Assembly (NCBI GenBank): GCA_903920215.1
Contig: CAIXLG010000098.1
Location: 1-40,889 of the forward strand
DNA from: an uncultured Chlorobiaceae bacterium
GTDB lineage: Bacteria > Bacteroidota > Chlorobiia > Chlorobiales > Chlorobiaceae
DNA: 40,889 bases
Direction of reading: 5' to 3'
The number at the start of each line of letters is the position of its first letter. Positions within the stretch are counted from its first letter, which is position 1. Position numbers and translations under genes: made by a program. Below are positions 1 to 40,091 of this stretch, in pieces. Below the pieces are notes generated by a model, which saw only the letters and a list, made by a program, of their open reading frames with translations, made no database searches and was not told the DNA's origin.

Positions 1-84
1 GGCAGTTGGCAGTTGGCAGTTGGCAGTTGGCAGTTGGCAGTTGGCAGTTGGCAGTTGGCAGTTGGCAGTTGGCAGTTGGCAGTT
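1..84. repeat. Tandem heptamer array (GGCAGTT)x12
   Basis: Twelve perfect head-to-tail copies of GGCAGTT start at the window edge, so the true array may be longer. It ends abruptly at 84 and is followed by about 110 bp of A/T-rich DNA leading into the four-helix-bundle gene at 194. The same heptamer in the same orientation resumes just after that gene, at about 578. Short heptamer arrays are typical of Chlorobi and cyanobacterial genomes (the STRR class in cyanobacteria). Confidence 0.97.
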
Positions 85-193
85 ATGGAAAAAAAATAAA
101 TTGATGGTTGATGAATTGAAATGTTTTTTACTTTTATTTTACAATATATTTACATATTAATACATTTTCTCAAAGACTAATTGATTTAAGGGA

Positions 194-568
194 ATGGGAA
201 ATGACTTTAAGGATTTGATTGTATACAAGAAAGCCTTTGCGATGGCTATGGAGATATACAGGATCAGCAAATCTTTTCCTTCTGAGGAGAAGTATTCGTT
301 AACTGATCAGGTTAGGCGGTCGTCGCGGTCTGTATGTTCTAATCTTGCCGAGAGTTACCGAAAAAGGCAGTATAGGGCACATTTCCTGTCGAAAATATCA
401 GATGCAGATATGGAGAATAGTGAAACGGAGGTTTGGATTGATTTCGCTTTACGCTGTAATTATATCACCATTGATGCGCATAAAGAGCTCATTGATAAAT
501 CAACGGAAGTTGGCAGAATGCTCAGTTACATGACTTTACATCCGGAGAGGTTCGAGGGGAAGAGGTAG
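194..568 (+). CDS. Four-helix-bundle protein, S23 / bIVP-Avd family
   Basis: A 124-residue, mostly helical, charged protein. It matches the family of 23S rRNA intervening-sequence proteins (S23, TIGR02436), which also includes Avd, the accessory protein of diversity-generating retroelements. Recognisable features are the N-terminal FKDLIVYKKAF segment, the central QVRRSSRSVCSNLAE helix and the FLSKISDADMENSETEVWI helix. The family forms a basic bundle thought to bind nucleic acid; the function of free-standing copies is unknown. The start ATG at 194 follows AAGGGAATGGGAA, a weak ribosome site. No rRNA and no reverse transcriptase lie next to it. GGCAGTT arrays sit on both sides, and the downstream array begins within about 10 bp of the TAG stop. 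Confidence 0.88.
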   Translation: MGNDFKDLIVYKKAFAMAMEIYRISKSFPSEEKYSLTDQVRRSSRSVCSNLAESYRKRQYRAHFLSKISDADMENSETEVWIDFALRCNYITIDAHKELIDKSTEVGRMLSYMTLHPERFEGKR

Positions 569-577
569 GCAGGGGGG

Positions 578-684
578 AGTGGGCAGTGGGCAGTGGGCAG
601 TTGGCAGGGGGGAGTTGGCAGTTGGCAGTTGGCAGTTGGCAGTTGGCAGTTGGCAGTTGGCAGTGGGCAGTTGGCAGGTGGCAG
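578..684. repeat. GGCAGTG/GGCAGTT heptamer array downstream of the S23-family gene
   Basis: About 15 partly degenerate heptamers (GGCAGTG, GGCAGTT, and GGGGGGA or GGCAGGT variants) start about 10 bp after the stop codon at 568. They share orientation with the array at 1-84, so the gene is bracketed by direct copies of one heptamer. All frames through the array are open on parts of both strands, which creates spurious ORFs. Confidence 0.95.
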
Positions 685-691
685 GTTTCGG

Positions 692-773
692 AGTGCTGAG
701 TGCTGAGAAACAAGATAGACCTGAGGGTTGCAAACTCTCTTCTTTCACTTCTCAGCACCCAGCACTCAGCACT
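692..773. repeat. Inverted AGTGCTG heptamer repeat (large potential hairpin)
   Basis: AGTGCTGAGTGCTGAG at 692-707 is complementary to the CTCAGCAC-type array at 751-773, with a loop of about 43 bp. In RNA it would form a long stem. Its right end provides part of the nuoN stop codon (CTA at 772-774 on this strand), so it may act as a transcription or 3'-end structure for the nuo operon. There is no clear U-tract, so terminator activity is uncertain. Confidence 0.85.
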
Positions 774-4027: not shown

Positions 4028-6337
4028 TTAATAGATCAGTCGTGTAAAATAAAAGACAAAATAACCGAAGACAACAGCAAGCAGCATGACGACGTAGGTC
4101 TGAACCTTGCCTGTCTGGAGTTTTCGTAAAACCGCACCTGTGGTGTTGACAGAGAATGCCGTAAAGTTCACCAGGCCGTCAACGACATATTTGTCGAAGC
4201 TGTTGTTGGCGAATGCGACTTTCTTGACAATGAGAGCGACTCCGTTGACGATGCCATCAATAATATTGGTGTCAAACCAGGAGAGCATTTTTGAAATGAG
4301 CATAGAGCCCCTGATAAATGTTGCATCGTAGATTTCGTCCCAGTACCACTTGTTGAGCGAAAAGAGGTAGAGTGGACGGATGGCCTCGGCCGTTTTATCA
4401 GGGTCGATGATTCTAAAGACATAGACGATACCGGCCAGAGTGATTCCAAGGATCACCATGATGCTTGAAATGTAGATGGCTGGGAAATGCGCGGCGTGAG
4501 AGGCGTGGGCGATCTCGGCCTGACGCTCGTTTGTAAGTGCTGAGTGCTGAGTGCTTTCTTTAAGTGCTGAGTGCTGAGTGCTGAGTGCTGAGTGTTCGGC
4601 TTCGGGAGCTGAGTGCTGCTCAGAGAGTGCTGAGTGCTGAGTGCTGAGTGCTGAGTTTTCGCCTTCGGTTGCGGACTGCTGACTGCCAACTGCCAACTTT
4701 TCACTGCTGGGTGCGGACTGGTAACTGCCTACTACTGTGGGTGGGGTTTGGATCATTTTCATGAACCAGCCTTGGGCTCCGTCGAGGGGGTTCGGGGAGT
4801 AGACGAAGAATACTGAGAGGGCTGCCAAAATTACCAGTGGGGCTCTCATGTTCCAGGAGACTTCGTGAACTTCGTGAGCGGCGTGATGATCGTCGTTGTG
4901 CGTGTCGTGGGTACTGTGAGCGTGATGTGCGCTATGATGATCGTCCGCAGGCTTGAGGTGTGTGCGGCTTTCACCGAAGAAAACGAGCCAGATCTGGCGG
5001 CCCATATAGAAGGCCGTGAGCATGGCGGAAAAGAATCCGAGAACGGGAATAAGATAGTAGACGCCGCCGCCTTCAGCAGTTGCAAAGCCGATGGCACCAG
5101 CAAGAATGGCATCTTTACTCATGAAGCCGCTGGTGAGAGGAAGACCGGCAAGAGCAAGCGTAGCGAGAGTAAAGGTTGCAAAGGTCCATGGCATGTGTTT
5201 GCGAAGACCGCCCATCCAGCGCATGTCCTGCTCGTGGTGCATGGCATGGATGATGGCTCCTGAACCAAGAAAAAGACAGGCTTTGAAAAATGCGTGTGTT
5301 ACGAGGTGGAAAAGTGCGGCTGAGTATGCACCTACACCGAGACCGAGCACCATGTAGCCGAGCTGTGACACGGTGGAGTAGGCCAGAACCCTTTTAATAT
5401 CGTTCTGGGTAATGGCGATAGTGGCAGCCATGAAGGCGGTGAATGCGCCGATAAAGGCAATCACATGGAGCGCATCAGGTGTCAGGACAACAAAAATTCG
5501 GGCAACAAAATAAACACCTGCTGCAACCATGGTAGCTGCGTGGATAAGGGCTGAAACCGGGGTCGGACCTTCCATAGCATCCGGAAGCCAGATATGCAAC
5601 GGGAACTGAGCGGATTTGCCGACGCAACCCATAAAGAGAAGGAGGCCTGCCGCGGTGAGCCATGCATTGGACATTGCGAACTTCCCTGCTGCCAGGTTAG
5701 CGTAGATCTCAGTGAAGCTGAAGGTGTGGAACTGTGAGTAGAGAATCAGAATACCGAGCCACATGCCGATATCACCGACGCGATTGGCAAGAAAGGCTTT
5801 TTTCTGCGCATCGGCTGCACTGTCTTTTTCAAAAAAGAAGCCGATAAGAAGGTATGAGGAAAGACCGACCAGCTCCCAGAAGATATAGATAGAGAAGAGG
5901 TTGTCGGAAAGCACAATACCGAGCATGGAGAAGGTAAAGATGCCGAGAAAAGCGTAATACCTTCCGTAATTTTTGTCGCCGGCCATGTATCCGGTGGAGT
6001 AGAGATGCACAAGGAGACTGATCAGGGTAACCATGGCCAGCATGATGGCCGTGAGGTTGTCGATGACGATGCCCATTTTGATCTGCAAGGGACCGATTCC
6101 GGGCACTTGACCGAGATCAATCCAGGTAAAATCCCATGCAACCCTGAATGCAGGATCATAAGTCTGCACAATGACCGTCCAGAAGATATAGGCCGATAAA
6201 GCAAATGCTGTTCCAAGTATTCCAACCCCTACAAAATCGCCCCTGCGCGGAAGCCTGCGATTAAAAAAGATAAGAATGACAAACGAGAGCAGCGGCAGCA
6301 GCAGTACGACTATTGATAACTGAATTAAACTGTGCAT
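4028..6337 (-). CDS. nuoL: NADH-quinone oxidoreductase subunit L, with repeat-derived insertion
   Basis: A 769-residue antiporter-like subunit with the long lateral C-terminal helix; the final segment ends FYFTRLIY. Conserved features include FWELVGLSSYLLIGFF, GKSAQFPLHIWLPDAMEGPTP and the HAATMVAAGVY helix. It is much longer than E. coli NuoL (613 residues). Two loops account for the extra length. One is a His/Asp-rich stretch at about residues 460-492. The other is an insertion at about residues 535-603 encoded by heptamer arrays, containing repeated STQHSAL units. The reading frame stays open throughout, and the C-terminal lateral helix is intact, so the gene is probably functional. It lies 63 bp after nuoK and 41 bp before nuoM. 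Confidence 0.97.
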   Translation of the reverse strand: MHSLIQLSIVVLLLPLLSFVILIFFNRRLPRRGDFVGVGILGTAFALSAYIFWTVIVQTYDPAFRVAWDFTWIDLGQVPGIGPLQIKMGIVIDNLTAIMLAMVTLISLLVHLYSTGYMAGDKNYGRYYAFLGIFTFSMLGIVLSDNLFSIYIFWELVGLSSYLLIGFFFEKDSAADAQKKAFLANRVGDIGMWLGILILYSQFHTFSFTEIYANLAAGKFAMSNAWLTAAGLLLFMGCVGKSAQFPLHIWLPDAMEGPTPVSALIHAATMVAAGVYFVARIFVVLTPDALHVIAFIGAFTAFMAATIAITQNDIKRVLAYSTVSQLGYMVLGLGVGAYSAALFHLVTHAFFKACLFLGSGAIIHAMHHEQDMRWMGGLRKHMPWTFATFTLATLALAGLPLTSGFMSKDAILAGAIGFATAEGGGVYYLIPVLGFFSAMLTAFYMGRQIWLVFFGESRTHLKPADDHHSAHHAHSTHDTHNDDHHAAHEVHEVSWNMRAPLVILAALSVFFVYSPNPLDGAQGWFMKMIQTPPTVVGSYQSAPSSEKLAVGSQQSATEGENSALSTQHSALSEQHSAPEAEHSALSTQHSALKESTQHSALTNERQAEIAHASHAAHFPAIYISSIMVILGITLAGIVYVFRIIDPDKTAEAIRPLYLFSLNKWYWDEIYDATFIRGSMLISKMLSWFDTNIIDGIVNGVALIVKKVAFANNSFDKYVVDGLVNFTAFSVNTTGAVLRKLQTGKVQTYVVMLLAVVFGYFVFYFTRLIY
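4530..4735. repeat. AGTGCTG and AACTGCC heptamer insertion inside nuoL
   Basis: Several blocks of AGTGCTG heptamers (plus strand) at about 4536-4655 are followed by CTGCCAACTGCCAAC at about 4685-4698, the complement of the GGCAGTT heptamer. On the coding (minus) strand the AGTGCTG blocks read as CAGCACT units, which are open in all three frames and encode the cycle S-T-Q-H-S-A-L. The insertion falls in a loop between predicted membrane helices. Confidence 0.92.
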
Positions 6338-12045: not shown

Positions 12046-12078
12046 AGTGCTGAGTGCTGAGTGCTGAGTGCTGAGTGT
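12046..12078. repeat. AGTGCTG heptamer array
   Basis: About 4.7 copies of AGTGCTG, same orientation as the arrays at 692-707 and 16776-16830. Complementary CAGCACT pairs follow at 12171-12184 and 12278-12293, so the block can fold as nested hairpins. Confidence 0.95.
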
Positions 12079-12090
12079 TTGGGTTTGTTT

Positions 12091-12343
12091 GTTGACTGCT
12101 GAGTGTTGGGGTTCAGGAATCACCCCAACCTACATTCGGACTTTCCTCTCTGCATGCTGCCGACTCTCTTCAGCACTCAGCACTTGTTTTGTTGACTGCT
12201 GATTGTTGGGGTTCAGGAATCACCCCAACCTACATTCGGACTTTCCTCTCTGCATGCTGCAGAATCTCTTCTTACTTCTCAGCACTCAGCACTTGTTTTG
12301 TTGACTGCTGAGTGTTGGGGTTCAGGAATCACCCCAACCTACA
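12091..12343. repeat. Two and a half tandem copies of a 100-109 bp unit with REP-like hairpins
   Basis: Units begin with GTTGACTGCTGA at 12091, 12191 and 12300. Each contains an identical 29-bp element (12106-12134, 12206-12234, 12315-12343) with a 7-bp stem TTGGGGT / ACCCCAA around a 9-base loop, ending CCTACA. The first two units continue through a shared CTTTCCTCTCTGCATGCTGC stretch to a CAGCACT pair; the third is cut short after the hairpin. The same 29-bp element occurs at 20639 and 21819. This pattern resembles REP/BIME repeats mobilised by TnpA-REP transposases, but no such gene is in the window. Confidence 0.93.
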
Positions 12344-12352
12344 TTGGGTTGT

Positions 12353-12604
12353 TTACTGATTATTGCTGTAGAATTTGGTGCCGAGATGCCGAAAGAGCTT
12401 TAATAATAAGACAGTCGCAAACAGCACTATGAGCAGTATTACTCCTTGCGTTACTGGCCAGGAGCTTGAGAGAGTATAGAGTATTGGAGTGAGAATCGGT
12501 ATGAGCAGTATCCAGATGATCGGGGCCCATGCAATGCCGACCATGATGGGAAGTCCGGTTTTCATAAACCGTTTTTTTTGATCTGAATCAGTGAATAGTT
12601 TCAT
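12353..12604 (-). CDS. Small two-helix membrane protein, unknown function
   Basis: An 83-residue protein with two predicted transmembrane helices (about residues 16-40 and 50-70) and a basic N-terminus. The family is not recognised. It starts 8 bp after the TPR gene on the same strand, so it is likely the last gene of the four-gene set that starts with the PAP2-like gene. Its stop codon is next to the third REP-like hairpin, which may act as a 3' end structure. The tight spacing and good ATG support a real gene. Confidence 0.65.
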   Translation of the reverse strand: MKLFTDSDQKKRFMKTGLPIMVGIAWAPIIWILLIPILTPILYTLSSSWPVTQGVILLIVLFATVLLLKLFRHLGTKFYSNNQ

Positions 12605-15724: not shown

Positions 15725-16768
15725 ATGGAAACTGTTCCCTGCCCCATAAGCAACTCGAAGGAGTTTACCCCTTATCTTCAGGTTCCCGACCGTTTTGACC
15801 GTTCCGGAAAAGCAGAGTGGAATCTTGTCCGTTCAAGCACGTCAGGGCTTATTATGCTTAATCCCCGTCCGGATAGTGCTGAAATAGGCCGGTATTACCC
15901 TGGCGCCCGGTATGACCCCTATCGGAACAGCAGCAACAGTTCGTCCTTTAAAGAGAGGGCCTATCTTGCCGCACGAACTCTGCTGCTCGGCTATCGAGCC
16001 GGAATCATTTTGAAAGGATGGGAAAAGCCGATGGAAGAGTGTGCTGTGCTTGAAATCGGGTGTTCGACGGGGGATCTTCTGAATTATTTTCGTCGAAAGG
16101 GAGTACCGATCAAGAACCTTGCCGGTGTTGAACCTGATGCTGATGCAGCACGATATGCTCGTGAGTTTTTCGGGCTGAACATTTTTCCTTCAATTGCGGA
16201 GGTTAGCGCTGGGAGGAAGAAATTTGACCGCATTGTGCTCTGGCATACGCTTGAGCATATTCACGCCATCAATGAAACGCTCCATGAGGTTGCAGAGCAG
16301 CTTAAGCCGGACGGTGTGCTTGTGATTGCGCTGCCAAATCCGGCAAGTTTTGATGCTGAGCATTTTAAGGAGAACTGGGTGGCATGGGATGCGCCGCGGC
16401 ATCTCTATCATTTCTGGCCGGGAACGCTTGAAAAACTGCTGGGATTGCATGGGTTGAGGGTTTTTAAACAGCGGGCTTATTTTCCGGATGCGGTTTACAA
16501 TATTTTGCACAGCGAAGGGCTGAGATGCAGTCGGCAGGGGGGGGAATTAGTGCTGAGTGCTGAGTCGCGAGTGCTGAGTGAAGAAAGTGAAAACAGTGGG
16601 CAGTCGGCAGTGGGCAGGGGGCAGGGGGGGGAATCAGTGCTGAGTGCTGAGTCGCGAGTGCTGAGTGCTTTCGGGATTTTGAGACTTCTTGGGAGAGGAG
16701 GGGTTGATGCGCTTCGGGGGGGAGCGAGGGCTTCGAGCGTTGTTTATTATGCTGAAAGAAAGGGCTGA
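15725..16768 (+). CDS. SAM-dependent methyltransferase with repeat-derived C-terminal insertion
   Basis: A 347-residue class I methyltransferase. The SAM-binding glycine motif is VLEIGCSTGDLLNYF (about residues 108-122), followed by an acidic strand end (VEPDADAARYA) and LWHTLEHIHAINETL. An N-terminal extension resembles that of methyltransferases with an added substrate domain. The substrate is unknown; sugars, lipids and small molecules are all possible. Residues about 270-316 are encoded by two copies of a heptamer-rich 47-bp repeat, read in frame. After it the protein resumes with a family-like tail (SSVVYYAERKG). It is probably active, since the insertion follows the catalytic core. Confidence 0.88.
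   Translation: METVPCPISNSKEFTPYLQVPDRFDRSGKAEWNLVRSSTSGLIMLNPRPDSAEIGRYYPGARYDPYRNSSNSSSFKERAYLAARTLLLGYRAGIILKGWEKPMEECAVLEIGCSTGDLLNYFRRKGVPIKNLAGVEPDADAARYAREFFGLNIFPSIAEVSAGRKKFDRIVLWHTLEHIHAINETLHEVAEQLKPDGVLVIALPNPASFDAEHFKENWVAWDAPRHLYHFWPGTLEKLLGLHGLRVFKQRAYFPDAVYNILHSEGLRCSRQGGELVLSAESRVLSEESENSGQSAVGRGQGGESVLSAESRVLSAFGILRLLGRGGVDALRGGARASSVVYYAERKG
16534..16667. repeat. 47-bp direct repeat made of heptamers, inside the methyltransferase gene
   Basis: Copies at 16534-16580 and 16621-16667 differ at one base (AATTAG / AATCAG) and are 87 bp apart, exactly 29 codons. Each is GCA, eight G, then AGTGCTG units with one variant, AGTCGCG. Between them is a degenerate GGCAGTG array. The order GGCAGT-type array then AGTGCTG array matches that at 578-707 and 40016-40073. 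Confidence 0.95.
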
Positions 16769-17064
16769 GAAAGAAAGTGCTGAGTGCTGAGTGCTGAGTG
16801 CTGAGTGCTGAGTGCTGAGTGCTGAGTGCTAGTGAAGATAGTTTTGAGTACTCAGTGTTTTTTTCTTTTTTATTGTATGCTTAAACTTGAGGAGGGCAAA
16901 GTTGAGTTCGATTGCTGAGTGGTGAGGGCTGAGGGCTGAGGGCTGAGTAATGCCGGGAGGGTTGGTGGTCGGTGGTGGGAAGGAAGAAAAGATGCATCAC
17001 TCAGAGGAGTTCGGGATGAGATAGGGGGCGGAGTACCGGAGAGGGAGTTTGGCGGGCAACTCGT
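16769..17064. other. Repeat-filled region between convergent methyltransferase and comEC genes
   Basis: It contains 7.9 copies of AGTGCTG at 16776-16830 and a second array of GAGGGCT-type heptamers at 16914-16948. The rest is G-rich low-complexity sequence. No gene and no standard terminator were found. Confidence 0.85.
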
Positions 17065-40015: not shown

Positions 40016-40091
40016 GCAGTTGGCAGTTGACAGTGGGCAGTGGGCAGTGGGCAGTGGGGAGGAAAATGCTGAGAATAAGAGATGCTCAGCA
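40016..40091. repeat. GGCAGTG heptamer array plus TGCTGAG inverted pair
   Basis: Six GGCAGTK heptamers (40016-40060, with one GACAGTG variant) are followed by TGCTGAG (40067-40073) and its complement CTCAGCA (40085-40091). This is a short version of the 578-773 arrangement in the same order. Confidence 0.9.

What the first reader, a model, noticed from the sequence alone, without database searches (positions are those of the whole stretch)
1..773. S23/Avd-family gene framed by heptamer arrays: candidate mobile repeat system
Seen: a free-standing four-helix-bundle gene sits between direct arrays of GGCAGTT (12 perfect copies left, about 15 degenerate copies right), and the right arm goes on into an inverted AGTGCTG repeat. 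Known: the family includes Avd, an accessory protein of diversity-generating retroelements, and proteins coded in 23S rRNA insertions, so nucleic-acid mobility is a theme. Inference: the protein and heptamers form one element, and other arrays in the window are its non-autonomous traces.
Basis: partly seen in the sequence, partly recalled or inferred. Interest (0 to 1): 0.72.

Follow-up and report, generated by a model that had tools for sequence, protein, structure and literature searches.

The report
Mobile S23 gene between heptamer arms
A small gene of the family found inside some bacterial 23S rRNA genes turns out, in many phyla, to sit between short 7-letter repeat arrays that usually mirror each other, and gene plus arrays come and go as one unit; this offers a source for the heptamer repeats scattered through bacterial genomes, whose role has been unknown.

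Summary
The window (a whole contig that starts inside the left array) holds an intact S23/IVP gene (194-568) between GGCAGTT arrays, followed by an AGTGCTG hairpin. In Chlorobiales, 36 of 60 S23 genes have a period-7 array within 400 bp (0 of 60 for periods 5, 6, 8-11; ParE control 1 of 30). Flanks of S23 genes show autocorrelation at 7, 14, 21 and 28 bases even where no array is recognisable. Across phyla the 5' and 3' arrays are usually reverse complements of each other within a locus, enclosing the gene in a potential stem, as in the 23S rRNA intervening sequence (IVS). At the hypF-hypC site the element is gained or lost at least 8 times; two species share a 97% identical S23 gene between flanks only 72-80% identical, with the break in the arms. 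In one genome it sits in frame inside pglX. So arms plus S23 behave as one mobile unit, a non-rRNA relative of the IVS. The window copy is atypical: its arrays are direct, and close relatives carry arrays here without S23. No reverse transcriptase is linked; the movement mechanism is unknown and my mechanism is inference.

The parts
1..84 (+). 5' array: 12 perfect GGCAGTT units, cut off by the contig end
85..193 (+). AT-rich leader without recognisable heptamers, between array and start codon
194..568 (+). S23/IVP (four-helix-bundle) gene, 124 aa, intact
574..685 (+). 3' array, about 15 degenerate GGCAGTT/GGCAGTG units in the SAME orientation as the 5' array
691..772 (.). AGTGCTG hairpin (arms 691-706 + and 753-772 -), ending at the nuoN stop codon; an expanded ortholog of its array is in G061
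4536..4697 (.). array-only insert of AGTGCTG and CAGTTGG units in frame inside the nuoL gene (4028-6337 -), encoding ...ALSTQHSALSEQHSAP...; length varies between relatives
12046..12374 (.). array plus about 2.5 tandem copies of a 100-bp hairpin unit with heptamer-like ends; array-only relative
16549..16947 (.). cluster of AGTGCTG and CAGTKGG arrays without S23
40016..40058 (+). solo CAGTKGG array

Best explanation
The S23 gene and its heptamer arms are one small mobile hairpin element, a non-rRNA relative of the 23S rRNA intervening sequence. SHOWN by comparison: the usual unit is [purine-rich heptamer arm]-[S23 ORF]-[complementary arm], placed in sense between co-directional genes or, once, in frame inside a gene; it is gained and lost repeatedly at a fixed site and transferred between species with sharp edges in the arms; S23 can be under strong purifying selection. 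INFERRED: the transcript folds into a stem with the ORF in the loop, as in the rRNA IVS; the S23 protein (solved relatives have five chains) binds the phased heptads; spread relies on host enzymes because the element encodes no nuclease, transposase or reverse transcriptase; solo arrays and array-only hairpins are S23-less derivatives that persist and grow or shrink by slippage. The window copy is a decayed or rearranged example with extra array-only copies on both sides.
For: Association: 36/60 S23 loci with a period-7 array within 400 bp, other periods 0/60; 41 arrays in 703 kb of far flank. Autocorrelation excess at lags 7, 14, 21, 28 on both sides (+0.135/+0.140 Chlorobiales; +0.10/+0.124 other phyla), still +0.075 to +0.10 in loci without a detectable array; far control -0.013. 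ParE control: -0.009/-0.015, arrays 1/30, no arm complementarity. Same-locus arm complementarity: median 34 vs 18 for mixed loci (0/20000 permutations) and 30 vs 18 in Bacteroidota (0/5000). Cyanobacterial plasmid copies and Riemerella show the same mirrored arms. Arm median 33 bp, 3' arm 9 nt after the stop codon. Sense 36 sites, antisense 2, between co-directional genes. hypF-hypC: 13 filled and 20 empty sites, 12 changes on the tree, at least 8 on supported branches; G027/G049 S23 DNA 96.8% vs hypF 72.5% and hypC 80.2%, edges in the arms, arm indels of 35 and 7 nt. dN/dS 0.05 for G009/G016. PglX insertion with frame open through the S23 element, absent from the G054 ortholog. Known IVS anatomy, including heptamers upstream of S23p in Coxiella: PMC4990558. 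Five-chain structures 2gsc and 2rld.
Against: No movement was observed; all evidence is comparative, and species are at most about 95% identical, so exact target sites and duplications could not be read. Same-site transfer could be recombination between arms of resident elements. The window locus and a few others have direct, not inverted, arrays. Arrays occur without S23 at this very site, and G071 has 247 array hits and no S23. Heptamer sequence tracks S23 clade only weakly across sites (r 0.17; one per site r 0.12, p about 0.06). In Bacteroidota clean arrays are rare (2/30) and some arms have period 8. G027/G049 S23 dN/dS is near 1 on few changes.
Confidence: 0.68

Rival explanations
1. S23 is a resident small regulator whose arms are its own RNA-binding sites (autoregulation or operon mRNA processing, TRAP-like), and same-site turnover is ordinary gene loss plus homologous recombination between strains.
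For: Purifying selection (dN/dS 0.05); sense bias and operon positions; matched arms; the same sites are reused across genomes.
Against: S23 96.8% identical between flanks of 72.5% and 80.2% with edges in the arms; insertion inside pglX; many unrelated sites (42 clusters among 90 loci); similar S23 genes in different phyla at different sites (Cloacimonadota L154 vs Scalindua L155, 77% DNA identity).
Confidence: 0.17
2. Heptamer hairpins are the mobile unit, moved by an unrelated enzyme; S23 is a passenger captured inside some of them.
For: Array-only hairpins exist without S23, including at the window site in G071, G033 and G073, inside pglX and nuoL, and in a genome with no S23 (G071).
Against: S23 is the protein found between the arms in many phyla and is conserved; the ParE family in the same genomes is not so placed.
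Confidence: 0.11
3. The arrays are ordinary slippage microsatellites that happen to lie near S23 genes.
For: Copy numbers change by whole units (G061 vs G000 array; indels of 35 and 7 nt).
Against: Only period 7 is enriched; phase persists in degenerate arms; the two arms match each other better than arms of other loci; slippage cannot create mirrored arms.
Confidence: 0.03
4. A diversity-generating retroelement remnant: S23 is an Avd that has lost its reverse transcriptase and repeats.
For: bAvd-like profile match; separate low-scoring Avd-like genes beside reverse transcriptases exist in other Chlorobium genomes.
Against: Avd equivalog score 39 against cut-off 80; none of the three RT matches of this genome is on contig C98; genomes with S23 plus arrays but no RT match, such as G033 and G043.
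Confidence: 0.01

Closest known systems
23S rRNA intervening sequence (IVS) with S23p ORF (Coxiella, Leptospira)
   Same: Same protein family; ORF in the loop of a stem made of terminal complementary sequences; in Coxiella tandem heptamers GACAGAT stand just upstream of the ORF (PMC4990558); mobility has been hypothesised.
   Different: Here the element lies between protein genes or inside one, not in rRNA; arms are long heptamer arrays whose sequence varies by locus; turnover at fixed sites is documented by comparison.
Intergenic tandem heptamers of prokaryotes (SPADE survey, PMC6344855; STRR of cyanobacteria; TAACTGA repeats of Beggiatoaceae, PMC4679880)
   Same: Period 7, intergenic, lineage-specific units, hairpin-forming STRRs between operon genes (PMC2670836).
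   Different: Those reports do not tie the repeats to a protein family in the passages read; SPADE states there is no clear clue to their function.
Avd of diversity-generating retroelements
   Same: Homologous four-helix bundle; Pfam bAvd match.
   Different: No linked reverse transcriptase, no equivalog-level score.
MITEs, REP/RAYT elements and Rickettsia palindromic elements
   Same: Array-only hairpins resemble non-autonomous palindromic repeats; some insert in frame in genes, as Rickettsia palindromic elements do (own knowledge; MITE review PMC10969869 listed, not read).
   Different: The associated protein is S23, not a transposase; ends are phased heptamers.

Membership tests
S23/IVP protein family (PF05635, TIGR02436) | profile score over curated cut-off | tested here: met
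   115 vs 33.8 bits; 98 vs 24 bits
23S rRNA IVS | located inside a 23S rRNA gene | tested here: not met
   window copy lies beside nuoN; Rfam finds no rRNA in 40 S23 loci, only one tRNA
23S rRNA IVS | ORF enclosed by terminal complementary sequences | tested here: inconclusive
   met as a group statistic across phyla; not met by the window copy, whose arrays are direct (inverted score 14, direct 144) and whose left end is cut
23S rRNA IVS | excision by RNase III | not testable with these tools
   needs RNA experiments
DGR accessory protein Avd | equivalog score NF033474 | tested here: not met
   39.2 bits against cut-off 80
DGR accessory protein Avd | linked reverse transcriptase | tested here: not met
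   RT matches of G000 lie on C53, C166 and C196, none on C98
DGR accessory protein Avd | template and variable repeats | not tested
   no RT to anchor a search
DNA transposon / MITE | target-site duplication | tested here: inconclusive
   no duplication seen at pglX or hypF-hypC, but relatives are too diverged to read it
DNA transposon / MITE | transposase or RAYT partner | not tested
   no search for transposases was made

The most novel reading that the evidence does not exclude
S23 genes define a bacteria-wide class of selfish hairpin elements that use neither transposase nor reverse transcriptase of their own; heptad-phased arms are read by the S23 oligomer, the rRNA intervening sequences are one branch that settled in 23S rRNA, and the unexplained heptamer repeats of prokaryotic intergenic regions are largely their arms and relics.
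Probability: 0.33. Interest if true: 0.92.

Novelty: new variant of a known kind. Interest (0 to 1): 0.8.

Why it matters
Tandem heptamers were reported as the most abundant tandem repeats in intergenic regions of many prokaryotes, with no clue to their function (PMC6344855). Tying them to one protein family makes their origin testable. It also links three separately studied things: rRNA intervening sequences, Avd-fold proteins, and heptamer repeats such as cyanobacterial STRRs. And it points to a small mobile element that inserts into operons and even in frame into genes while encoding only an apparent nucleic-acid-binding protein.

Tried and rejected
A multi-family S23 alignment was too diverse for a collection scan, so a three-sequence alignment of the window subfamily was used; this biases the non-Chlorobi loci of that scan to one subfamily. 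The idea that each S23 clade carries its own heptamer was only weakly supported. A link to DGR reverse transcriptases was rejected. Rfam gave no RNA family for the arms. A first hypF/hypC tree built without alignment was discarded for the aligned one. In one search several nuoN loci were read on the wrong strand; one search corrects this. Structure prediction and fold comparison were not run because profile matches and solved relatives already place the protein. Paper searches found no report linking S23 genes to heptamer arms outside rRNA; subscription papers are largely missing from that library.

Full report
WHAT IS IN THE WINDOW. The window is a complete contig (G000:C98) of a draft Chlorobium-type genome and begins inside the left array. 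It carries 12 perfect GGCAGTT units (1-84), an intact 124-aa S23/IVP gene (194-568), about 15 degenerate units in the same orientation (574-685), then an AGTGCTG hairpin (691-772) that abuts the nuoN stop codon. The S23 gene and nuoN are convergent. The genome has one S23 gene over the cut-off and dozens of array loci.

ENRICHMENT TEST. I took 60 S23 loci of the order from whole-genome searches. 36 have a period-7 array within 400 bp; periods 5, 6 and 8-11 give 0. Far flanks hold 41 period-7 arrays in 703 kb, so about four would be expected near the genes. The 60 loci are not independent, since many share a site. The ParE toxin family in the same order gives 1 of 30 and no lag-7 signal. Autocorrelation of the flanks peaks at 7, 14, 21 and 28 on both sides, in Chlorobiales and in other phyla, and remains in loci with no recognisable array. 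The period is therefore a general property of S23 flanks, degenerate in most loci and expanded in some.

MIRRORED ARMS. The two flanks of one locus are reverse complements far more often than flanks of different loci: median score 34 against 18 in Chlorobiales, 30 against 18 in Bacteroidota. Within one site, hypF-hypC, arms of the same genome still match each other better than arms of other genomes (12 of 20,000 permutations as high). Plasmid-borne copies in Calothrix, Nostoc and Trichormus and a Riemerella copy have the same layout, for example GGGTGTAGGGTGTGG...CTACACCCTACACCC. Arms have a median of 33 bp and the 3' arm starts about 9 nt after the stop codon. Some arms have period 8. A minority of loci, the window among them, have direct arrays. 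In its sisters L080 and L081 array hairpins lie on both sides of S23, which can explain the direct pattern.

SITES AND ORIENTATION. 90 loci fall into 42 site clusters: hypF-hypC, pglZ-brxL of BREX, cas1-cas2, helicase-associated defence genes, and others; gene names here are mine, from reading the translations. Between two co-directional genes S23 is in sense at 36 sites and antisense at 2.

MOBILITY. At hypF-hypC 13 genomes are filled (spacer 431-589 bp in the 12 that could be measured) and the 20 empty sites fetched have spacers of 51-205 bp. On a HypF+HypC tree the S23 state needs 12 changes, at least 8 on supported branches; sister genomes differ. G027 and G049 share 96.8% S23 identity between hypF at 72.5% and hypC at 80.2%, and the alignment drops exactly where the arms end. 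G009/G005 and G020/G002 behave likewise. Arm lengths differ by 35 and 7 nt. The S23 proteins of G009 and G016 are under strong purifying selection (dN/dS 0.05).

INSERTION INSIDE A GENE. In G048 the BREX gene pglX has an in-frame insert of about 145 residues, made of the S23 element with S23 in another frame; the pglX frame stays open through it, and the ortholog in G054 lacks it. A second, array-only hairpin insert lies upstream in the same gene. In the window, nuoL carries an array-only insert in frame in a variable loop.

THE WINDOW SITE IN RELATIVES. Downstream of nuoN, G061 (99% identical NuoN C-terminus) has the same AGTGCTG array, much expanded, and then its contig ends; G071, G033 and G073 have arrays or hairpins without S23; G038 and most others have neither. 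Arrays can thus precede or outlive S23.

HOW IT MAY WORK. Shown: a unit of arms plus S23, sense-biased, gained and lost, transferable with edges in the arms. Inferred: the transcript forms an IVS-like stem with the ORF in the loop; the S23 oligomer (2gsc and 2rld are five-chain entries) binds phased heptads; insertion uses host enzymes. Retro-mobility by a resident reverse transcriptase is possible in principle but is not general: G033, G043, G041 and G036 have S23 and no RT match, and G071 has hundreds of array hits with neither.

RELATION TO THE KNOWN. Closest is the 23S rRNA IVS, whose Coxiella member even has tandem heptamers upstream of S23p. The heptamers of prokaryotic intergenic regions are an open question. 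I found no paper in the searched library joining the two outside rRNA. I therefore rate this as a new variant of a known kind.

Noticed in passing
L142-L151 (GxxExxY genes, PF13366): These genes also lie between complementary ends, of other kinds: TGTCTGAACC(A/T)TGATT... ends, or ACCACGGAA and CGCAGATT-type repeats of about 9 bases. A second small-ORF hairpin element may exist.
   Followed up: partly
L122, L124, L127, L128, L130 (hypF-hypC spacer of S23-less Chlorobaculum): The same spacer holds a period-9 inverted element (GTGGACTGA.../GTCCACTTT...) instead of S23, so different hairpin elements share one site.
   Followed up: partly
L062 (G048) pglX: S23 is encoded in another frame inside an in-frame insert of a BREX methyltransferase gene, with a second array-only insert upstream.
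   Followed up: yes
L269, L275 (Flavobacterium-type Bacteroidota) and L301 (Nostoc plasmid): Arms with period 8 rather than 7.
   Followed up: no
L166, L167, L267, L272, L273, L276, L277, L279: Different S23 subfamilies recur just upstream of thiolase-like genes in Bacteroidota (identified by eye from the start of the downstream translation).
   Followed up: no
G060:C33, G063:C296, G066:C134, G067:C142, G070:C110, G074:C123, G084:C16: Low-scoring S23-like genes (about 22-24 bits) lie within about 1 kb of reverse transcriptase genes: probably true Avd proteins of diversity-generating retroelements, distinct from the heptamer-flanked S23 genes.
   Followed up: partly
window 12088-12345: Tandem array of about 2.5 copies of a 100-bp unit containing the palindrome GTTGGGGTTCAGGAATCACCCCAAC and heptamer ends; a similar palindrome lies upstream of S23 in L066.
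   Followed up: no
L208 (G061) downstream of nuoN versus window 691-772: The orthologous AGTGCTG array is expanded to over 20 units in G061 against 2-3 in the window, showing rapid length change.
   Followed up: partly
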